Shown: one piece after another, positions 33,325 to 46,662 of the stretch
How positions within the stretch are numbered: the stretch's first letter is position 1
Layout of the letters: every line of letters starts with the position of its first letter
Assembly: GCA_018831265.1 (NCBI GenBank)
Contig: JAHJCO010000012.1
Span: 1-64,000, forward strand
Length of the DNA stretch: 64,000 bases
Origin: Actinomycetota bacterium
GTDB taxonomy: Bacteria; Actinomycetota; Geothermincolia; Fen-727; Anoxymicrobiaceae
Reading direction: 5' to 3'
Notes under the pieces: generated by a model
The model's input: only the letters and a program-made list of their open reading frames with translations
The model's database searches: none
Told to the model about the DNA's origin: nothing
Position numbers and translations under genes: made by a program

Positions 33325-34180
33325 GTTCGAGGTCACCGACAGGGAGGGTCTCGCGCCGGACGTCTTCCGGATGACCGTTCGGGCACCCCTCATCCCGCCG
33401 AACGCGGCGGCCGGGCAGTTCATCATCGTGCGCGTGGACACTCAAGGTGAGCGCATCCCGCTGACCCTCATGGACTACTCCCGCGAGGAGGGGACGGTCG
33501 AGATGGCCTTCCAGGTGGTGGGCACCACCACCATGAAGCTCTCCCGCTGCGAGGTCGGCGACTGCCTGGCCGACGTGGTCGGGCCCCTGGGGCGGCCGAC
33601 CGAGGTGATGAGGTTCGGGAAGGTCGCCTGCGTCGGGGGAGGGGTCGGCATCGCCGCGCTCTACCCGATCGCGCGGGCCATGGTGGACGCCGGCAACGAG
33701 GTGCGGGTGCTGCTGGGGGGGCGGGACCGGGAGCACCTGATACTCACCGACAGGATGGAGGCGCTGGACGCGGACCTCCGGGTCGCGACCGACGACGGCT
33801 CCTTCGGCGTGAGGGGCTTCGTCACCGAGCTGGTGCTGGAGGCCATAAACGAATGGGGCCCTGACAGGGTCGTCGCGGTGGGGCCGGTTCCCATGATGCG
33901 CGCGGTCTCGATGCTCACGAAGGAGCACGGTGTCCCGACCGTGGTCAGCCTCAACGCGATAATGCTCGACGGCACAGGGATGTGCGGTACATGCCGTTGC
34001 GAGGTCGCCGGCGAGACGAAGTTCTCCTGCGTGGACGGGCCGGAGTTCGACGGCCACCAGGTCGACTTCGAGGTCCTGGTGTCAAGGCTCAAGGCCTACC
34101 TGGACGAGGAGGCGGTATCGCGCGACCGCTTCGCGGGCCTCGCCGAGGGGTACAGGCCGGCCTGCGGGGAGGGCGGATGA
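33311..34180 (+). CDS. FAD/NAD-binding flavoprotein subunit, SudB/NfnA/PyrK-like
   Basis: 289 residues from TTG 33311 (AGGGAGC 6 nt upstream), overlapping cooC by 14 nt. The FAD-binding barrel (FRMTVRAPLIPPNAAAGQFIIVRV, RIPLTLMDYS) precedes the NAD(P) domain (VACVGGGVGIAALYPIARAM) and a C-terminal 2Fe-2S loop with cysteines in GMCGTCRCEV and KFSCVDGPEFDGHQVDF. This matches the small subunit of NfnAB/sulfide dehydrogenase, which passes electrons between NAD(P)H and ferredoxin. The large partner (GltA/SudA-like) is not next to it; it may be elsewhere, or this subunit serves another partner. Confidence 0.82.
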   Translation: MERARFEVTDREGLAPDVFRMTVRAPLIPPNAAAGQFIIVRVDTQGERIPLTLMDYSREEGTVEMAFQVVGTTTMKLSRCEVGDCLADVVGPLGRPTEVMRFGKVACVGGGVGIAALYPIARAMVDAGNEVRVLLGGRDREHLILTDRMEALDADLRVATDDGSFGVRGFVTELVLEAINEWGPDRVVAVGPVPMMRAVSMLTKEHGVPTVVSLNAIMLDGTGMCGTCRCEVAGETKFSCVDGPEFDGHQVDFEVLVSRLKAYLDEEAVSRDRFAGLAEGYRPACGEGG

Positions 34181-35658
34181 GCGCGGACGAGAAGGTGAGG
34201 GTCCGCTTCGCCCCGAGCCCCACGGGTAAGCTGCACCTGGGCTCGGCCCGCACGGCGCTGTTCAACTGGCTGTTCGCGCGGGGGCGCTCGGGCGTGCTGG
34301 TGCTGCGCCTGGAGGATACGGACCCCGAGCGTTCATCGAGTGAGTTCGAGCGCGACATCATCGGCTCGCTGCACTGGATGGGCCTGGACTGGGACGAGGG
34401 TCCCGACGTGGGGGGAGAGTACGGGCCCTACCGCCAGAGCGAGCGCATGGACCTGTACCGCGAGCACGCCGACCGCCTGCTGGAGACCGGCAGGGCCTAC
34501 CGTTGCTTCTGCACCGCGGAGGAACTGGACGCGCGCAGGAAGGCCGCGATCGCCGAGGGCAGGGCCTGGCGTTACGACCGCGTGTGCACCGGGCTCGGCG
34601 AGGCGGACGCGGCGGGGAGGGCTGCCGCCGGGGAGCCGTTCGCCCTCCGCTTCCGCGTCCCGGAGCAGGTCATCATAATCGACGATATGCTGCGCGGCGC
34701 GGTCGAGGTGGACTCGCACGAGATAGACGACTTCATAATAATGCGCTCTGACGGGACCGCGGGGTTCCACCTCGCGGTGGTCGTGGACGACTTCACCATG
34801 GGGATCACGCACGTGATAAGGGGGGACGACCACCTGACCAACGCGGCCAGGCACGTCCTGCTCTTCGAAGCGTTCGGCGCCCCGACGCCGCGCTTCCTGC
34901 ATCACTCGCTGCTCATGGGAAAGGACGGGGGGAAGCTGTCCAAGAGGCACGGCTCCACGGCCGTCTCCGACTACCGCGAGAAAGGCTACCTCCCGGTGGC
35001 TCTGACCAACTACCTGGCGCTGCTGTCCTGGGCGCCCGGCGACGACCGTGAGCTCTTCAGCCTGGGCCAGCTCGTGGACGAGTTCGGCATCGAGGGTGTC
35101 TCGGCGAGCAAGGCGATATTCGACGTGGACAAGCTCAACTGGCTGAACCGCCAGCACATGAAGGCGCTCTCCGACTCCGAGCTCACCGACCTGGTGATAC
35201 CTTTCCTCCAGGCCGAGGGCCGGACCGCCCTGCTGGGCCTGCCCCGCGTCAGGCTGGAGGTCGCGGTGGCCTCGGTGCGCAACGGCATGGAGACGCTTGT
35301 CGACGCTGTCGAGCCGATGGACATCTACGCGCGCCCCGCCGGTGAGATCTCGGCCAAGGCGCTGGCCGAGCTGCGCAAGTCGGGCGAGCTGGACGAGGCC
35401 CTGAGGCTCTGCGTCGAGGCACTGCGCTCAGAGTCCTCAGACGACATGGAGACAGCGGAGCGGATAGTCGCACGGCTGCGCGGTGAGGCGAAAGAACGTG
35501 GATGGGGGGCCAAGAAGGTGCTCTGGCCGTTCAGGCTGGCCGTGACCGGCCTCACGGTCGGTCCCGACCTCGTCTACCTTATAATGTTCTGGGGGCCGGG
35601 CGGCTGCGCTGACCGCATAGAGGCCTCGATGCCGGCACTGGAGGGTAGCCTTGGCTGA
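34177..35658 (+). CDS. gltX: Glutamyl-tRNA synthetase
   Basis: About 493 residues. ATG 34177 overlaps the previous stop (ATGA) and follows GGGGAGGGCGG. HIGH-type motif [21 protein letters not shown] and KMSKS-type motif [16 protein letters not shown] are intact, with [10 protein letters not shown] and [21 protein letters not shown]. It charges tRNA-Glu (and perhaps tRNA-Gln) with glutamate. It lies in the tight run cooC-flavoprotein-gltX-cysE with overlaps at each junction, so the four are co-transcribed. Confidence 0.95.
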
Positions 35659-36331
35659 GGGTCACAGAGGGCTCGGGGAGTTTATAAACGATGCCATTGC
35701 AGTGCTGCGCTCAGACGTCCGGGCGGTCAAGGACCGCGACCCGGCGGCGACCAACACGCTCGAGGTGATCCTCACCTACCCGGGCCTGCACGCGGTCTGG
35801 CTGCACCGCGTGGCCAACTACCTCTGGCGCCGGAAGGTGCCGGGACTGCCCAGGGCCATCTCCATGTTCGCCCGCATGCTCACCGGCATCGAGATACACC
35901 AGGGCGCCACAATCGGCCACGGCTTTTTCATAGACCACGGCATGGGCGTGGTCATCGGCGAGACGACCGAGATAGGCGAGAACGTCACGCTGTTCCAGGG
36001 CGTGACCCTCGGCGGCACGGGCAAGGAGAAGGGCAAGCGCCACCCCACCATCCAGGACAACGTGGTTATCGCCGCGGGTGCCAGCGTACTGGGGCCGATC
36101 ACGGTGGGGGAGAGCTCCAAGGTGGGCGCCGGGGCGGTGGTCATCCAGGACGTGCCACCGAACTGCACGGTGGTGGGGGTCCCGGGGCGCGTGACGGTAT
36201 GCTCGGGAGAGCGCATCAGCCCCATCGACCTTCACCACGAGGATCTGCCCGACCCGGTGCTGGACATGTTCAACACCATCGAGCGCCGCCTGGACCGCAT
36301 CGAAAAACGCCTGGACAAAGAGCCCCGATAA
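35651..36331 (+). CDS. cysE: Serine O-acetyltransferase
   Basis: 226 residues, TTG start overlapping gltX by 8 nt and preceded by GGAGGGTAGCC. Left-handed beta-helix hexapeptide repeats ([54 protein letters not shown] in the gene, quoted here only as the region around residues 85-140) include the catalytic HGMGVVIGE and GKEKGKRHP blocks. It makes O-acetylserine from serine and acetyl-CoA for cysteine synthesis. The C-terminal tail ([16 protein letters not shown]) is a short coiled coil. Last gene of its operon. Confidence 0.93.
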
Positions 36332-36456
36332 GGAACTCAACCTACCGCACAACCCTTTAGAAAACCTCCCAGTTGCCGATACTACATCTAACTCTGGTGG
36401 AACCATGCCTGGGCTCTGCCAGGACCGGGGGCAAAACGATCGAAGGGGAGGCGGGG

Positions 36457-39400
36457 ATGAGCGGCAACCCACACGTAAGGACCAGGACCCTTGTGACCAC
36501 AATCGCGGCATTCCTGTTCGTAACCTGTGTTCTGCTGGCAATCTCGACCATCGCACAGGCATCAAACCCGGATAACGACCAAACCCCAATGGGGGGGGGG
36601 CCTAGACTCCCTCCTGACCTCTACCCTTAGCTCCCGTGCCCCCGCCCCCGTCGTCACCTCAATCACCCCCGATTTGGCCAGAAGCGGCGACACCAACGTG
36701 AAGATCACCAAGCTCTCCGGCACCGGCTTCCGCTACGGGGCCACTGTGAGGCTCACCAGGAGCGGCCAGAGCTACATGGAGGCCAGGTACGTAAGGGTAG
36801 TCTCCTCGAAGAAGATAACCTGCACCCTGGACCTTACCGGCGCCCTGCCCGGGGCCTGGAACGTGGTGGTCATAAACACCGATGAAGGAAGGGGTACACT
36901 CAGAAACGGCTTCACCGTACTGCCCCCTCTTCCCACCATCACCTCCATAACCCCCGACAACGCGGGAAGCGGAAATCCCGCCTTGTCCACCGCGGTAATC
37001 GGCACCAACTTCGTCTCCGGCGCTCAAGTCGTCTTGAGGCGAAACGGCCATGACGACATAGTCGCAAACCCCGGGACGTTCATCTCCTCCACCAGGCTGG
37101 ACTGCGTATTCGACCTCACGGGAGCCGACGACTGGTACTACGAAGTGGTTGTGACCAACCCGGACGGGGGGAGCGCCACCCTCCAGTACGGCTTCTACGT
37201 GAACCCTGCTCCCGACGTGCGTTCCATCAGGCCATCCTCGGCTGGAACCGGGAACCCGGCCTTCACAGCCCAGATTCGTGGAAGGCACTTCGAAGAGGGT
37301 CTCGTGGTGAAGCTCACCCGGACAGGGTGCCCGGACATCGTGGCATCAAGCGTTGAAGTTCGCTACGGCACCACCATCAGCTGTTCCCTCGACCTCTCAA
37401 CTGCTGAACTCGGTGCCTGGGACGTGCACGTCATCAACCCTGACGGGGGCAGATCCGTGCTTCCCGCTGGCTTCACCGTCACCTCCAACCCGACTTTGAC
37501 CTCCATCACCCCGGACAACGCCGGGAGCGGGAACCCCGCCTTCCAGGCACTGATAACGGGGGCCAATTTCGATCCTCTGGCCGCGTTCAAGCTCCAGAGA
37601 GGCAGCACCAACATACAGGCCTCCACCACCTCGGTTGACGAATCGCGCACATATGCCGACTGCACCTTCGACCTGAGGGGCGCTTCCGTCGGTCCGTGGG
37701 ACGTTGTGGTCACTAACCCGGACGGAGGAACCGCCACACTGGTTCGTGGTTTCCGTGTGAACCAGTATCCCAGGGTGTACGCTATTACCCCGAACAGCGC
37801 CCCGGGCGGGAAAGCGAGCGTTCCGGTTGCCATCTCCGGCAACCTCTTCTTCTCCGGAGCCCAGGTCTCCCTCGAGAGGGAAGGGGAGCCTGCAATCGAT
37901 GCTCGAGAAGAAGTGGTGACCCCTTACTACGCGATTACCTGTACCCTCGACCTCACCAACGCTCTCCCGGGAGCCTGGGACGTGGTCGTGACCAATCCCG
38001 ACGGGGGGAGGGGAACGCTTCCGGCAGGCTTCACCGTCACCCCGGGACCGACCGTAACCTCAATCACCCCAAATAGCGCCAGGACCGGTGAGATCGTCCA
38101 GATAACGGACCTTGCCGGAGACCTCTTCCAGGCCGGAGCGACAGTCAGGCTGACTCACGAAGAGCTTCCCGGCATAGACGCCACCGAAGTGGATGTGGTC
38201 TCACCTCAGGAGATAACCTGCTCCATCGACCTCACAGGCGCCTCTCCCGGGGCCTGGAACGTGGTCGTCACCAACCCGGACGGGGGCTCCGGGTCTCTGG
38301 GAGGAGGCTTCACCGTCGATTCTCTCCCTCCGCCCACAGTCACCTCCATCGAGCCCGACTGGGCGAACAGCGAAAACGGCGTGGTCTCCGTCACGGTCAC
38401 CGGGACCGGCTTCGTAAACGGAACCTCAGACGAAAAGACCTCCTTCCGGCTCTCTCGAACGGGCCACACCGACATCGAAGCCGAGAACGAGACAGTGCTC
38501 TCCACATCGGAGATGACCGGTACCCTGGACTTGAGCCAGGCGGCTTCCGGCTCCTGGGACGTAGTGGTGACCAACCCCGATTCCCAGAGCGGTGTCCTTC
38601 CCAACGGCTTCACGGTCAACCCCCCGCCATCTCCCACCTCCATAACCCCTGCAAGTGCGGGAAGCGGCGCTGCCGAGGTCAGGATAACCATCCAGGGCAG
38701 TCACCTGGACCACACCGATACTGTGGTCCTTGTAAGAGGCGATCTGACCATCACCGCCTCCAACCTCTCGTTCTCAGCGGAGCAGATAACCGGCACTCTG
38801 GACCTCAGGGACGCCGAGCCCGGCCCCTACGAACTGGTGGTGAGAGACACCTATGCCGGAGAGGGGACGCTTCCCAATGCCTTCACCGTGAATCCCGCTC
38901 CCATTGTCTCAGGCATCACCCCTGACAAGGGACGGACCGGCGAGGTAATGGAGGCAGCCGAGGTCTCCGGCTCCAGCTTCGCACAGGGAGCGATCGTCAG
39001 GCTCACCCGGGAAGGACACGCAGATATCACCGCCATGGAGGTGATCGTGGTCTCCCACGAGCACATCACCTGCACACTCGACCTCTATGAGGCCGAGCCC
39101 GGCCCCTGGAGCGTATCCGTGATCAACCCGGACGCAGGCATGGGTACCCTCACCGACGGATTCACCGTAACAGCCGTCCAGACCCTCACCTCCATAGAAG
39201 TCACACCCTCTGACATCACCCTCTACAACGGCTCGCAGCAGCAGTTCGAGGCGATCGGGCGGGACCAGGATGAAAACCCCGTGACCATAACCCCGGAGTG
39301 GTCATGCGATGCCTGGGTGGGAACCATAGATCCTCAGAGCGGTTTATTCGACGCCACCGGCTGGGGCACAGGGACGATCAACGCGACGTTTGAAGGCGTC

Positions 39401-42400
39401 ACTGGTACAGCCCAGGTACACATCCCCAGCATCCTACCCGAGGTCATCAACGACCCCGATTACCGCCTGGAGAAGAAATACAGCCCCTACATCCTGACCA
39501 GGCCGATGACCATCGATTACGGTGCCAGGCTTACCATAGAGCCCGGGGTGATGATAAAGGCCCAATCGGGAATCCGGAACGCGACGATAATCGTGTATGG
39601 AGTACTCCATGCCGACGGGGCCATCAGGGACGCGGAAGGAAACATCACGGCGGTGGACCCCGTCACCATAACCTCCCTCAAGGACGACGACCCTGTCTAC
39701 GGCGACACCAACGGGGACGGTCCGAGCCAGCCCCGCTGCGGGGACTGGTTCATCGTCTACTTCTACAACCCGGCCGAGGCCTCCACTCTCTCCCACTGCG
39801 TGATGCGATACGGCGGAGGGTCTGGCACCGAGGAGATGAACCTGGTGCTGGACGGAAGCCACCTGATAGAGAACACGGTCATGAGCGACTACACCCGGGT
39901 GGGGGTGGAGGTCCGGGGCGGCTCTCCCCTCATCCGTGACTGCCTCTTCCACCGACTGGACGAGGTCTCGGGCGCCCTGACCCAGACCGCGGTATCGGTA
40001 CTGGGCGGCTCTCCCACCGTGGAGGACTGCACCGCGAGCGGCCTCGCCGGCACCGGACTGGTGGCAAAAGGGGGCACTCCAGTTTTCAGGAACAACACGA
40101 TCGCGAACTGCGCCTCTGGGATCGTGGTGGCAAAGGAACCGGGCTACGGCGAGCCATGTCCCGCCCTCACCGGAAATCGCATCCATGCTTGCGCCGGTGA
40201 CACTATTTATATGAGCGACTGCTCCTGGAGCGCTCTATCGGCCAACACTTGGAAGAGGCCCGGGGGAGAGGACCCCTCAGACTGCAACGGCATAAACGGG
40301 ATACGGGTGCAGGGCACCTACTCCTCGGACATGAGGTGGAACAACGCCAATCCGGACCTGCCGTTCGTACTCTACGATACCGGTCAGCCCTCCGGCGTCA
40401 CGGTGACGACCGGAGCCACCCTGACAATTGAGCCCGGAACCAGGATCAAGGCCGGTGCGGCTTCATCCATCTGGGTCTGGGGCCGACTGCAAGCCCCCGG
40501 CACCTCGGACCAGCACATCACCATGACCTCCATCTTCAACCTGGATGGAGGTTCAACCTACAACCTGGCCCCTATCCAGAACCCTACCCCCGGGGATTGG
40601 AAGGGCATAAGGCTGGAGAACACCGACCCCGCCCTCGCCTCCAGTCTCTCATTCTGCGACGTCTCATACGCGGGGGGAATACCCACAACGGATGGAGGTG
40701 CTATCGGGGTACGGGGAGACCACCAGGTGACCTCCTGCTCGATATCCTGCTGCGCTTCCGACGGCGTGCATGTCTTCTCGGGCTCTCCACTTGTGAGGGA
40801 CCTGTCCACCTACCAGGTGAAGCTCCTCGGCGGTGATCCCCCGCCGGCACCCGCGATGGCATCGGTGAGGGTGGTGGACGGCAGCGCACTGGTCGAGAAC
40901 TCGAGCGGCTCTACCGCCTCCATGCAGGATGGAGACTACGGGGTCTGGATCGAGGGGGGGAGCCCGACGATACAGAACGGACTGCATATCAACGGGATGC
41001 GGGCGGTGGGGGTGCAGATCACCGGGGGGACGCCGGCAGTTCAAGGAAATCTGATCGAGAGCTGTCAGTACGGGATCAAGATCGATGGGTGCGATGCAAT
41101 GACCACTGTCGCTGAAAACACCGTGAACAACTGCACGGAGTTCCTGGGCCGTGTTGAAAACGGGTTGGAGAACCTGCAGATATTCGACAATAGTGGCTCG
41201 GGCTGCAGGATTAATGGCATTGAGCTTTCCGCCTACTCGTGGTTCGCCACTAACTCCATTCGCCTCATGGCCAACCTCGTTCCGTATACCATGACCGAGA
41301 GCGACTTCACGGTCCCGGCAGGTTCTACCCTGGTGATAGACCCAGGCGTTATCATCAAGTGGCTGGATGTGAGGATGACTGTCGCAGGGTCTCTGCAATG
41401 CGTAGGCACGCAGCAGGACCGGATCTGCATCACCAGTCTGTACGACGATTCTGTTGGAGGACCGACGAGCAACGACGGTTTGCCTCACTACCCATCGTAC
41501 AACGATTGGGGAGGGATCAGTCTGGCGAATGACCAGTGCTTCGTCCAATGGACCCGGCTCGCCTACGGTGGTTCCGGGAACGCTCTCTTAAACGTGGAAA
41601 ACTGCTCTCCAATTCTGAGCAAGCTCACTATAGACGGTGGTACATCCTACGGGGATAGAGGAGGCACCGGGATCAGGCTATCTGGTGATACTTGCACCAG
41701 GATCGATGACGACGAACCTGGAGCCACCACGATTTCCTATTGCGATGTCGCGGTCCTGGTGGACCTAGACGACCACTCCCGCCCTGGCCAGCCTATCGTG
41801 AATGGCTGCAATCTATGGGATTCCAACTACGGCGTGCAGTTACTGAACGGCGATCCGGAGAACCCGTTTAACGCGGAGTGGAACGACTGGTGCCACTTTG
41901 GAGTAGAAAACGGCCCGGCGCCGGCGGGCGACGGAAGCGCCGTGTCTGACTTCGAGACAACGGACGTTCTGCCATGGAAGGGCCTTGGTCAGAATCACGA
42001 GCAAGACCACGACAACGACGAAACGCAACCCGAGGTGGGGATATCATATAGTGTTTATGACAGGCCAGGAGCAGTTGATGCATGCGAGGGGCTTGCGACC
42101 GTCTTCGCCCTCGATGGAGCCACTATCCGGCAGAGAAGAGGCAACGTAGCCCCATCTGAACCCCATTATCCGTTACTCCTTTCCGGCAGAGAAAGAGATC
42201 TCCGCGACTATTACCTGAATCCCGGAGACCCACAGACCGAAGGTCAAGATCCCCTTTCTTCCGACAATGTGGACCTTGTAATGAACGCGGGCCACGGGTG
42301 GCTAAAGCAGCCGCCTGGTTCAGGTGATTCGATCATCGACTACCAGAATGGGATGGGGCCTAATGGTGGTTTGTTGCCTTCATCCAGCCTGGGCTGGGGG

Positions 42401-43294
42401 GACCAGGATCTAGAGTGGGCGATCGTATACAATTGCAGGCTCCTTGCCAGGAACGATCAGGCAGACGTCGCTGCTGAAATGCCGGACAGGGCTGGAACAC
42501 CGGGTGTAGTACCGGAAGACGTCCAGTATAACGAGAATGATTATTACACTCTGCTGGATGTGGAGAGTAGATTCCGCTACAGAACTGTTGCCAAGGGCCT
42601 TCATCTGCTGATGGGCATGGGGACCAAGTGTTGGATGACGGGTGCTGTGGGGGTTGAGACCGCACAGCGGATCACTCAGCCTGACCCGAGGAATATGACG
42701 GATGCATGGAAGCTTGCCAACTACCATAATCAAGCGCAGGACAGGCGGGACGAAGCCCAAGTTTGGGAGGACAGAAGTATCTGGGACCCCTATAACCTGG
42801 CTGTCGTTTACGGCGCAAGTGAATCCTTCGGTGATTTCTTCTTCGGGCACGGGCCGCAGTCATCAGATCCGGGCCTCAATTCCGGGCGTCGTCTCGAGTA
42901 CCAAGTGTGCGACTACGTACGAGAAGACGGCGGCTATGTGGAGTTACCGAGCAGTGAGCTACCAAAGGGCAACATCGTTGTCGTAACAACAAACTATAAC
43001 GTTCAGCCGGGGCAGGAGGTTGAGTTCATCGCTCTGTCCGAAGGGGGCCCCGGTGAGACCCCCCAGCCGTTTGACTCGGGCGTGATCGTCAGATTCAGGA
43101 AGACCGAAGCCGAGGGGACCCGGCAGTACATACAGCAACCAGCTACATTCATCGACGAGCACAGAGTCAGGGTTGTTATTCCCTCGAACGTGGAAAGAGG
43201 CAAGGATTATCAGGTGTTGTTCCTCAACCACAACATGAACTTTGGATACCTGGAGGTCGATTTGCACATAGAGGAGGCGTTACCCCCGCCATGA
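36457..43294 (+). CDS. Giant secreted IPT/TIG - Ig-like - beta-helix protein, frame broken at a G10 tract
   Basis: Start ATG 36457 (GGGGAGGCGGGG upstream) opens a signal peptide (RTRTLVTTIAAFLFVTCVLLAISTIAQA). That frame ends at 36630, while the body continues in the +1 frame after ten G at 36591-36600; nine G would join them. The body (~2,230 residues) has about ten ~80-residue IPT/TIG repeats (SITPD-AGSGN ... WDVVVTNPDGGxGTL-GFTV), a Big2-like domain (~39180-39430), right-handed beta-helix repeats (TIEPGVMIKA, VRGGSPLIRDC; ~39440-41900), and a C-terminal region with VDLVMNAGHGWL and EWAIVYNCRLL, resembling DUF6345/caspase-like folds. A surface adhesin or enzyme is inferred. The partner gene at 43291 overlaps by 4 nt. 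Confidence 0.8.
36591..36600 (+). repeat. Homopolymer G10 tract at the frame break
   Basis: Ten consecutive G between the signal-peptide codons (DNDQTPM) and the mature part. Removing one G restores a continuous frame. It could be a slippage switch (phase variation) or an assembly error. Confidence 0.85.
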
Positions 43295-44253
43295 GTAAGT
43301 CACTGTCCAAATCAACCTGTATTGCTCTTGGTGGTGCGCTGGTCGCAGTGGTCGGCACTGCAATTGTCCTCGTGATGTTCCTGGGGGGTGGAAACGCCGT
43401 CCCTCCACTGGACGCCCCACCGGAGGCTGCCAATAAGCCTGTGAAAGGTAGCTTACTCCTCACCGCAAAGGAAGCACCTCAGGTTCCCGAGGTACTCACG
43501 GTATACCGCTTAGAGCAAATTGCGAAGAACAGGAAAGAAATCGAGGAATTGGCAAAAGAGTTTGATCTCGTACAACCTATCAAACTCGATGAATTAGGAG
43601 CAGGAAGCAGGAGTAGCGGAGTTGAACACGAAGAATTCGACAACTACTACGCGCGTGAGGGCGATCCGAATATTGGCCGCATCTTTCACTACTACTTCAG
43701 GACAGGTAATTACGAGTTCTGGATAGGTTCTAAGTACGGGGAGGAGAATCCCGACCTTCCAACGGTCGAAGAAGCCGGTGCGCTTGCTATGCATGCGCTT
43801 GAAGAACGGGGCCTTTTGCCCGACGAGGCCTTTGTGTCAACAATAGGTGGACCCCAAGCCGAGACGATTATTGATGACCAATATAGGAAGTTCCTTCTAC
43901 AGAGAGACGTCGAGATATCAAGAGAGGTAGATGGCAGGACGATCGTCGGTCCCGGGATGCGCATCATGGTTTCGCTGGGGACTGATGGGGAGCTGATCGG
44001 CGTCGACAGCACCATGAGAAACCTGGTTCCTTACAAGAAGTTCGAGGTCAAGTCGCTTGAAGAAGCAATCGAGGACGCAGAGAAGGGCAATGACACGATG
44101 AACCTCCATCCTGATGTGGAGAACCCTGAAGTCTCGCGGGTGGAGCTGATCTACTACGCCGACCCCTCGAAGACGACCAATCAGTTCCTGCAGCCCGTCT
44201 ACTGCCTTTCCGGCCCCGAAACCTGCATCTATGTACCTGCAATAAAGCAGTGA
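43291..44253 (+). CDS. Membrane-anchored extracytoplasmic protein coupled to the giant secreted protein
   Basis: 320 residues. ATG 43291 overlaps the previous stop (ATGA). One N-terminal helix (CIALGGALVAVVGTAIVLVMFL) anchors an outside domain rich in charged residues: FDNYYAREGDPNIGRIFHYYFRTGNYEFWIG, LPTVEEAGALAMHALEERGLLPDEAF, and a two-Cys end (YCLSGPETCIYVPAIKQ) that could form a disulfide. No family recognised. Strict coupling suggests it helps secrete, anchor or inhibit the upstream protein. The GC content here and in the last ~1.5 kb of the upstream gene is visibly lower than in neighbouring genes, hinting at transfer. Confidence 0.7.
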   Translation: MSKSLSKSTCIALGGALVAVVGTAIVLVMFLGGGNAVPPLDAPPEAANKPVKGSLLLTAKEAPQVPEVLTVYRLEQIAKNRKEIEELAKEFDLVQPIKLDELGAGSRSSGVEHEEFDNYYAREGDPNIGRIFHYYFRTGNYEFWIGSKYGEENPDLPTVEEAGALAMHALEERGLLPDEAFVSTIGGPQAETIIDDQYRKFLLQRDVEISREVDGRTIVGPGMRIMVSLGTDGELIGVDSTMRNLVPYKKFEVKSLEEAIEDAEKGNDTMNLHPDVENPEVSRVELIYYADPSKTTNQFLQPVYCLSGPETCIYVPAIKQ

Positions 44254-44300
44254 TGCCAAATACTTAAGCTATAAGGCAGTCTAACCCAGAATCTTCACAT

Positions 44301-44309
44301 TGATATAAT
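44301..44309 (+). promoter_or_regulatory. Extended -10 promoter of cysS operon
   Basis: TGA-TATAAT with -10 at 44304-44309, about 80 nt before the cysS ATG. The leader contains the hairpin CTCGGG-N10-CCCGAG (about 44319-44340). No T-box motif is seen. Confidence 0.6.
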
Positions 44310-44389
44310 GTCTAGACGCTCGGGGCGCTGAAATCCCGAGTGGTTATCGGTTCCTTTCAGCCATCGACAAGAGCCAACAAGGTTGAAAC

Positions 44390-45847
44390 ATGGCCATCAG
44401 GCTATACAACACCATGACGCGAAGGAAGGACGAGTTGGTCACCCGCGAGGAGGGTAAGGTCCTCATGTACGTGTGCGGGCCGACCGTGTACAACTACATC
44501 CACATCGGCAACGCGCGCACCTTCCTCAACTTCGACTTCATACGGCGATACATGGAGTTCGCGGGCTACGACGTCACCTTCGCCCAGAACGTCACCGACA
44601 TAGACGACAAGATAATCAACCGGGCGCGCGAAGAGGGCATAGAGGCCGAGCAACTCGCCGAGAAGTACCGCGTGGCCTTCGAGGAGGACATGAGGGCTCT
44701 GGGGGTCAGGCCCCCTTCAATCGCCCCCCGCGCCACGGAGCACGTCAACGAGATGCTCGAGGTCATCGGAGCGTTGGTCGAAAGAGGCGTCGCTTACGTG
44801 TCCGAGGGCGACGTCTACTTCGAGGTAGCGAAGTTCCCCTCGTACGGGAAGCTATCCGGGCGCGCGCTTGACGAGCAGATGGTGACCGAGTGCGTGAACC
44901 CGGCCGAGCGCAAGCGCGACCCCCAGGACTTCGCCCTGTGGAAGGCGGCCAAGCCGGGGGAGCCCTCGTGGGAGAGCCCCTGGGGCCCGGGGAGACCCGG
45001 CTGGCACATGGAGTGCTCGACCATGTCGGTGCAGTACCTGGGCATGGGCTTCGACATCCACGGCGGCGGGCTCGACCTGGTGTTCCCTCACCACGAGAAC
45101 GAGAGGGCCCAGGCCGAAGCATGGGCCGGCGCCGGGCCGTTCGTGCGCTACTGGATACACAGCGGGATGCTGAACATCGACGCGGAGAAGATGTCCAAGT
45201 CGCTGGGCAACATCAAGACGCTGCGGGAGGTGCTCTCCGATTTCGACCGCGACGCGGTCAGGATGCTCATGCTGGGCACGCACTACCGCAGCCCCCTGAG
45301 CTTCTCCGACGAGAGCCTGGCCGAGGCGGCCGCGGCCCTGGAGCGGATAACGAACTGCCGCTTCAATGTGCGGGACGCCATCGCCCGGTACGACGCCGAG
45401 GTCGGCGGGGAGGACGGGCCGGCCACGGAGGCCGAGCGCGGATTCCGAACCATGCTGAACAGGACCGAGGAGGAGTTCCGCGCCCACATGGACGACGACT
45501 TCAACACCGCCGCCGCCATGGGGTCCGTTTTCGAGATGGTACGCGACACCAACTCCTACCTGGCGGGTGTAACCGGGGCATCCACGGCCGGCGAGAAAGC
45601 CGCCCTCCGTGACTCGCTGGAACTGCTGGAGGGACTCTGCGGCGCCCTTGGCCTGTTCGAGGAGGAGGAGGCCGGCGGGGAGATGGCCCGCCTGGCCGAC
45701 GGGCTGGTCGGCCTGCTGCTGGAGGTGCGGCTGGCGGCGCGCGCCAAGAAGGAGTTCGAGCTGGCGGACCGGATACGGGAAGGTCTCGCGGAGCTCGGCG
45801 TCCGGGTGGAGGATGTGGCCGGCGGGTACCGCTGGCGCCTGGAGTGA
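44390..45847 (+). CDS. cysS: Cysteinyl-tRNA synthetase
   Basis: 485 residues, complete. HIGH-type motif YNYIHIGNARTFLNFDF, zinc-binding residues including Cys in MYVCGPTVYN and WHMECSTMS with HHENERAQAEA, and KMSKS motif AEKMSKSLGNIKT are all present. It loads cysteine onto tRNA-Cys. It is the first gene of a run with rlmB (4-nt overlap) and yacP, a common arrangement in Gram-positive bacteria. Confidence 0.96.
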   Translation: MAIRLYNTMTRRKDELVTREEGKVLMYVCGPTVYNYIHIGNARTFLNFDFIRRYMEFAGYDVTFAQNVTDIDDKIINRAREEGIEAEQLAEKYRVAFEEDMRALGVRPPSIAPRATEHVNEMLEVIGALVERGVAYVSEGDVYFEVAKFPSYGKLSGRALDEQMVTECVNPAERKRDPQDFALWKAAKPGEPSWESPWGPGRPGWHMECSTMSVQYLGMGFDIHGGGLDLVFPHHENERAQAEAWAGAGPFVRYWIHSGMLNIDAEKMSKSLGNIKTLREVLSDFDRDAVRMLMLGTHYRSPLSFSDESLAEAAAALERITNCRFNVRDAIARYDAEVGGEDGPATEAERGFRTMLNRTEEEFRAHMDDDFNTAAAMGSVFEMVRDTNSYLAGVTGASTAGEKAALRDSLELLEGLCGALGLFEEEEAGGEMARLADGLVGLLLEVRLAARAKKEFELADRIREGLAELGVRVEDVAGGYRWRLE

Positions 45848-46662
45848 CGGCTCGAGAGAAGTACCCGGGACGACCTATGAGCGGCTCAGATCGCAATAAC
45901 CCCAGAAAGCCCCCCCGCGTATCCTCGTGCCGTATCGAGCAGGTCGAGGGCAGGAACCCCGTGCTCGAGGCGCTGAAGGGCCCCAGGAAGGTCCACGCGG
46001 TCTACATCGCCGATGGTGCCGGAGGGGCGGCCGTAGCGGCCGTGAAGGAGCTCGCCGCGCGGAAGGAGGTCCCGGTCAAGATCATCCCGCGGGGGGACCT
46101 GGAGAGCATGGCCTCGACCGACGTGCCGCAGGGTGTCATCGCGCGGGTCGCTCCGTACAGGTGCTTCGAGCTCGAGGACGTGCTGGAGCGAGCGAAAAGC
46201 CGGGTCCCGCTACTCCTTGCCCTGGACGGCGTCGAGGACCCGCACAACCTCGGGTCCCTCCTGCGCGTGGCGGATGCGACCGGCGTCGATGGGGTCGTGG
46301 TCACGAGACGTCGCACCGCCCCTATCGGACCCTCGGTCGCCAGGGCGTCGGCGGGAGCCCTGGAGCATGTCCATCTGGCGCGGGTGGCGAACATCGCCGC
46401 CACGCTGGAGCGGCTCAAGGAGGAGGGGCTCTGGGTGGTCGGCGCTGACGGCGACGCGCCGGATGACTACACCGCTATCGACATGACCATGCCGCTGGTG
46501 ATCGTCCTGGGAGGGGAGGGAAAGGGCCTCTCCCGCCTCGTCCGCGAGCGGTGCGACTTCCTGGTGAAGATCCCCATGCTCGGGCGGGTCTCCTCCCTCA
46601 ACGTTGCGACGGCGGGTGCCGTCCTCCTGTACGAGGCGGTGCGGCAGAGAGGAGGTGGTTGA
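45844..46662 (+). CDS. rlmB: TrmH/SpoU-family 23S rRNA 2'-O-methyltransferase
   Basis: 272 residues. GTG 45844 overlaps the cysS stop (GTGA); ATG 45877 is an alternative, since the first 30 residues are not conserved. The substrate-binding domain begins QVEGRNPVLEALKGPRKVHAVYI. The knotted SAM-binding fold shows LALDGVEDPHNLGSLLRVADATG, VIVLGGEGKGLSRLVRERCD and IPMLGRVSSLNVATAGAVLLYE, the three SpoU motifs. By context with cysS it should be RlmB, which methylates G2251 of 23S rRNA. Confidence 0.9.
   Translation: MTAREKYPGRPMSGSDRNNPRKPPRVSSCRIEQVEGRNPVLEALKGPRKVHAVYIADGAGGAAVAAVKELAARKEVPVKIIPRGDLESMASTDVPQGVIARVAPYRCFELEDVLERAKSRVPLLLALDGVEDPHNLGSLLRVADATGVDGVVVTRRRTAPIGPSVARASAGALEHVHLARVANIAATLERLKEEGLWVVGADGDAPDDYTAIDMTMPLVIVLGGEGKGLSRLVRERCDFLVKIPMLGRVSSLNVATAGAVLLYEAVRQRGGG

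What the first reader, a model, noticed from the sequence alone, without database searches (positions are those of the whole stretch)
36457..36640. G10 tract separating a signal peptide from a 2,200-residue surface protein
A clear start, ribosome site and signal peptide run in one frame up to ten G (36591-36600); the rest of the protein is in the next frame. With nine G the gene is intact. Slippage at such tracts is a known on/off switch for surface proteins, so this cell would carry the OFF state.
Basis: partly seen in the sequence, partly recalled or inferred. Interest (0 to 1): 0.72.

Follow-up and report, generated by a model that had tools for sequence, protein, structure and literature searches.

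The report
Slippery G-tract switches on surface-protein genes
A run of ten G's splits the secretion signal of a giant surface protein from the rest of the protein, and the same genome carries long G/C runs at the start of a small set of similar genes, so this is very probably a random on/off switch of a known type in a little-studied bacterium that lacks recognisable mismatch-repair genes.

Summary
ATG 36457, with a good ribosome site and signal peptide, runs into G10 (36591-36600) and stops at 36628-36630. The frame of about 2,230 codons (TIG repeats, beta-helix, DUF6345) is one base out of register.

The wider genome supports a slippage switch. G/C runs of 10 or more occur seven times in 3.87 Mb; extrapolating from 74 runs of 8 and 6 of 9 predicts about 0.5 (about 2 with a generous ratio). 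One lies at a contig end. The other six all lie at the 5' end of large secreted-protein genes: two inside the coding start (window, C60) and four 74-78 bp upstream of the ATG.

Two copies identical immediately around the tract (C60, C15) carry G10 and G8. Three related upstream regions carry C8, C10 and C11. Two other genera have such tracts between recognisable -35 and -10 boxes. No MutS, MutL or NucS was found. Coding G8 runs are in frame, which argues against general homopolymer error.

Length variation within the population was not seen, and the OFF state is inferred. Best reading: a new member of a known kind (simple-repeat phase variation), here as a multi-locus set using translational and probably transcriptional switching.

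The parts
36445..36451 (+). Ribosome-binding site GGGGAGG, 5 nt before the ATG
   Evidence: sequence
36457..36630 (+). Short frame: start codon, signal peptide (36457-36561), tract, early TAG stop (36628-36630)
36591..36600 (+). G10 tract, the proposed switch
36601..43294 (+). Body of the surface protein in the next register, about 2,230 codons, no internal stop
36640..39140 (+). TIG/IPT repeat region (approximate limits; best Pfam stretch is residues 701-787 of P0001)
   Evidence: PF01833, 6.9e-16
39857..40264 (+). Right-handed beta-helix region (best stretch)
   Evidence: PF13229, 4.6e-19
42227..42466 (+). DUF6345 match (best stretch)
   Evidence: PF19872, 1.3e-14
43291..44253 (+). Downstream 320-aa gene with an N-terminal membrane segment; its ATG overlaps the stop of the surface gene, so it is probably co-translated and would be affected by the same switch (inference)

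Best explanation
The locus is a phase-variable (contingency) gene. During replication the G tract slips and gains or loses bases. When its length puts the signal-peptide frame and the body frame in register (a multiple of three), the roughly 2,275-residue secreted protein is made; at other lengths, such as the assembled ten, translation ends after 57 residues. It belongs to a set of at least eight loci with a G/C tract at the 5' end. Three have the tract inside the coding start (window, C60:71663, C15:26808). Five have it 73-78 bp upstream of the ATG (C54, C56, C58, C59, C60:104597), where length changes would alter promoter or leader spacing. No MutS, MutL or NucS mismatch-repair gene was found, which would let slippage products persist. 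Shown: anatomy, distribution, and tract-length differences between close paralogous copies. Inferred: slippage in living cells, the OFF state, surface exposure, and the effect of the upstream tracts.
For: Exact frame anatomy. Excess of tracts of 10 or more (7 against about 0.5). All six that can be judged lie at starts of large secreted-protein genes; a uniform crude detector gives 5 of 7 for tracts of 10 or more against 6 of 79 for tracts of 8-9. G10 against G8 in copies identical for about 60 nt before and 29 nt after the tract. C8/C10/C11 in homologous upstream regions, and C10 at the same distance behind an unrelated upstream region. Tracts inside promoter spacers of secreted-protein genes in two relatives. 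No MutS1, NucS or MutL over cut-off. Paralogue aligned over about 2,100 residues without stops.
Against: No read-level or strain-level length variation could be examined. No full-length orthologue exists in the held relatives. Many similar secreted genes in the genome lack a tract. Promoter boxes are not recognisable at most upstream tracts of the own genome. The statistics were made after seeing the pattern. One paralogue (C59) is damaged by single-base deletions.
Confidence: 0.8

Rival explanations
1. Assembly or sequencing error: the true tract has an in-frame length and the gene is intact and constantly expressed.
For: Homopolymers of 10 or more are hard for most sequencing methods; this is one consensus sequence. 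Some relatives show very long G runs at contig ends that look like artefacts.
Against: Coding G8 runs are in frame in 33 of 36 cases and the other three are gene junctions. Error does not explain why tracts of 10 or more sit at starts of large secreted-protein genes. A tract of 9 would still be slippage-prone.
Confidence: 0.1
2. Fixed frameshift: the gene is a young pseudogene and the tract is where it broke.
For: A related gene on C59 carries single-base deletions in its body, so decay does occur in this group of genes.
Against: The window frame has no other lesion in 6.7 kb and aligns with its paralogue almost end to end. The sister loci have tracts outside the coding frame.
Confidence: 0.06
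3. The gene is expressed at G10 through transcript slippage or ribosomal frameshifting at the tract, so the tract sets a low constant level rather than a switch.
For: Slippage of polymerase or ribosome at homopolymer runs is known in general (own knowledge).
Against: Does not explain tracts upstream of the start codon in five loci or DNA-level length differences between copies.
Confidence: 0.04

Closest known systems
Poly-G/C homopolymeric tracts of Cutibacterium (Propionibacterium) acnes (PMC4746626)
   Same: Almost only G/C tracts, both inside genes and upstream of them; surface proteins included; one tract inferred to lie between -35 and -10 boxes.
   Different: There 54 tracts compared over 90 strains, with length changes that follow clades (slow); here one genome, a small set limited to large secreted proteins, and no strain comparison.
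Gardnerella homopolymer-tract loci (PMC11287997)
   Same: Tracts of 8 or more, mostly upstream of genes, many for surface proteins; 9- and 10-base lengths seen among colonies of one strain.
   Different: Host-associated, many A/T tracts; here essentially G/C only (four A9 runs in the genome).
Neisseria opc promoter poly-C and in-gene poly-G switches such as hmbR/hpuA (PMC3447861; PMC3786947 abstract)
   Same: Poly-C of 11-12 in a promoter sets surface-protein level, and switching rises in a mutS mutant; poly-G inside reading frames switches surface receptors.
   Different: Unrelated proteins and lineage; promoter function here not demonstrated.
Listeria inlA 5' poly-A tract (PMC2831843)
   Same: A homopolymer near the 5' end of a surface-protein gene causes early, reversible termination.
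   Different: Poly-A there, poly-G/C here.

Membership tests
Simple-repeat phase-variable loci, translational type | Homopolymer of about 8 or more near the 5' end of a coding sequence | tested here: met
   G10, 45 codons after the ATG
Simple-repeat phase-variable loci, translational type | Tract length decides whether a start is in frame with an otherwise intact body | tested here: met
   Short frame ends at 36630, body open to 43294 in the next register
Simple-repeat phase-variable loci, translational type | Tract length differs between cells or strains of one species | not testable with these tools
   No reads, no second strain; only paralogous copies differ (G10/G8; C8/C10/C11)
Simple-repeat phase-variable loci, translational type | Product is secreted or surface-exposed, or modifies the surface | tested here: met
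   Signal peptide and TIG/beta-helix domains; actual location not tested
Simple-repeat phase-variable loci, translational type | Reversible change of expression | not testable with these tools
   Needs an experiment
Promoter-spacer phase variation (opc/porA type), for the sister loci | Tract lies between -35 and -10 boxes | tested here: inconclusive
   Clear in relatives G007:C39 and G017:C13 (shuffle p about 0.0007 each); weak in C58 (p about 0.09); not found in C54, C56, C59 or C60:104597

The most novel reading that the evidence does not exclude
A lineage without any recognisable mismatch repair runs a multi-locus random switching system for giant secreted beta-helix, TIG and LamG proteins. 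It combines in-gene tracts with tracts 73-78 bp upstream of the start, and the tract position is kept even where the surrounding upstream sequence is unrelated.
Probability: 0.4. Interest if true: 0.62.

Novelty: new member of a known kind. Interest (0 to 1): 0.5.

Why it matters
Slippage switches are known best from host-adapted bacteria. Here the same logic appears in an unnamed lineage, with a plausible enabling condition (no MutS, MutL or NucS found) and a ready list of about eight loci to test. The original reads of the sample could settle it without any new experiment.

Tried and rejected
(1) Direct orthologues in relatives: none full-length outside the own genome, only TIG-repeat matches. 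(2) genome-contig scan with the protein confirmed nothing; a second scan with CysS gave only distant, pattern-biased hits and did not name the lineage. (4) Viral contigs for tract-flanking DNA: no match. (6) Poly-A switching: only four A9 runs in the genome. (7) Most G10+ tracts in other relatives lie at contig ends or in unrelated places, so the pattern is not uniform across the class. (8) Three apparent frameshifts at G8 controls were ordinary gene junctions. (9) The standard 16-18-nt promoter scan finds nothing at C58, C56 or the window.

Full report
What is there. The window holds ATG 36457 with an upstream GGGGAGG and a typical signal peptide, then G10 at 36591-36600, then an early stop at 36628-36630. 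The next register is open from 36527 to 43294 and encodes TIG/IPT repeats, a right-handed beta-helix region and a DUF6345 match. Its only upstream start (GTG 36527) has neither a ribosome site nor a signal peptide. A paralogue on contig C58, 48% identical over about 2,100 residues, has signal peptide and TIG repeats in one frame, so the two pieces in the window belong together.

Is the tract unusual? Yes. The genome is 3.87 Mb in 60 contigs and has 74 G/C runs of exactly 8, 6 of exactly 9, and 7 of 10 or more. Extrapolating the 8-to-9 ratio predicts about 0.5 runs of 10 or more; even a generous ratio predicts about 2. A-runs of 9 number only four.

Where are the other long tracts? Of the seven, one lies at a contig end (C23) and cannot be judged. 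All six others lie at the 5' end of genes for large secreted proteins. Two are inside the coding start: the window, and C60:71663, where GTG-VKPEWSSRT runs into G10 and the signal peptide SSATTAALFLLIL... follows in another frame. Four lie 74-78 bp before the ATG: C56, C58, C59 and C60:104597. The products carry LamG, Ig-like, beta-helix or TIG domains. Two further members have 8-base tracts: C54, upstream and homologous to C56 and C59, and C15:26808, coding and homologous to C60:71663. With one crude detector applied to all tracts, 5 of 7 tracts of 10 or more sit at such gene starts, against 6 of 79 tracts of 8-9. The detector misses C60:71663 because start and signal peptide are in different frames, and two of the six 8-base hits are the family members just named. 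Many other TIG-type secreted genes in the same genome have no such tract, so it is a property of a subset.

Do lengths vary? Within a population this could not be tested. Between paralogues they do. C60:71663 and C15:26808 are identical for about 60 bases before and 29 bases after the tract, yet carry G10 and G8. C54, C56 and C59 share an upstream region at 84-87% identity and carry C8, C10 and C11. C60:104597 shares the signal-peptide DNA with C56 at 97% but not the upstream DNA, and yet has C10 at nearly the same distance from the ATG. This suggests that the tract position, not just its ancestry, is maintained.

How could the upstream tracts work? In two relatives from other genera, a long G tract lies between good promoter boxes in front of secreted-protein genes: TTGACT-N8-G11-TATTAT (G007:C39, a homologue of the C60:71663 gene) and TTGACA-G10-N10-TAGAAT (G017:C13) (shuffle p about 0.0007 each). 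Spacers of 19 and 20 nt are longer than the usual 17, so loss of bases would be expected to raise expression (inference). In the own genome only C58 shows a hint of this (TTGCGC-21-TAGAAT, p about 0.09). The other upstream tracts have no recognisable boxes, so their mechanism is open.

Why would slippage be tolerated? No MutS1, no MutL above cut-off and no NucS were found in the own genome (94.8% complete), and MutS1 over cut-off is missing from all 29 genomes of the class that were searched. The positive controls rang as expected. Absence from incomplete genomes is not proof, but its consistency across relatives makes an assembly gap unlikely.

Could it be an error? Coding G8 runs were in frame in 33 of 36 cases, and the three exceptions are normal junctions between neighbouring genes. 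General homopolymer error is therefore unlikely, but runs of 10 or more are harder to sequence, and this remains the main rival. A fixed pseudogene is less likely because the body of the window gene is otherwise intact, although one paralogue (C59) does contain single-base deletions.

Comparison with the known. Poly-G/C tracts in or before surface genes are documented in Cutibacterium acnes, including one inferred to lie between -35 and -10 (PMC4746626); in Gardnerella, with 9- and 10-base lengths among colonies (PMC11287997); and in Neisseria, where opc poly-C switching rises in a mutS mutant (PMC3447861). The present case works like these. Membership in the strict sense needs observed length variation, which could not be tested. 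The lineage could not be named with the tools at hand.

Verdict. The finding is broader than reported: a set of about eight loci, most with the tract upstream of the gene.

Noticed in passing
window 33982-46662: The surface gene and its 320-aa neighbour sit between a serine-acetyltransferase-like gene (35651-36331) and cysS (44390-45847), inside a gltX-cysE-cysS-SpoU run. Third-position GC of the surface gene is 0.73 against about 0.85-0.9 in housekeeping genes, which would fit insertion of a foreign gene.
   Followed up: partly
L036 1800-1960 (G000:C59): The C59 paralogue with a C11 upstream tract carries two single-base deletions about 60 nt apart relative to C54 and C56, so it is either a pseudogene or locally misassembled.
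   Followed up: partly
L030 8059-8071 (G000:C23 end): A G13 run lies 9 bases from a contig end, next to a transposase-like gene; the gene it belongs to is not assembled.
   Followed up: no
L177 3961-3971 (G001:C3): A G11 tract lies directly before the start of a metal-binding-lipoprotein-like gene in another genus of the same family; a possible further switch.
   Followed up: no
L184, L187 (G007:C7, G007:C128): G10 and G13 tracts lie inside a phosphomannomutase-like gene and a gene next to a response regulator in G007; not examined for frame effects.
   Followed up: no
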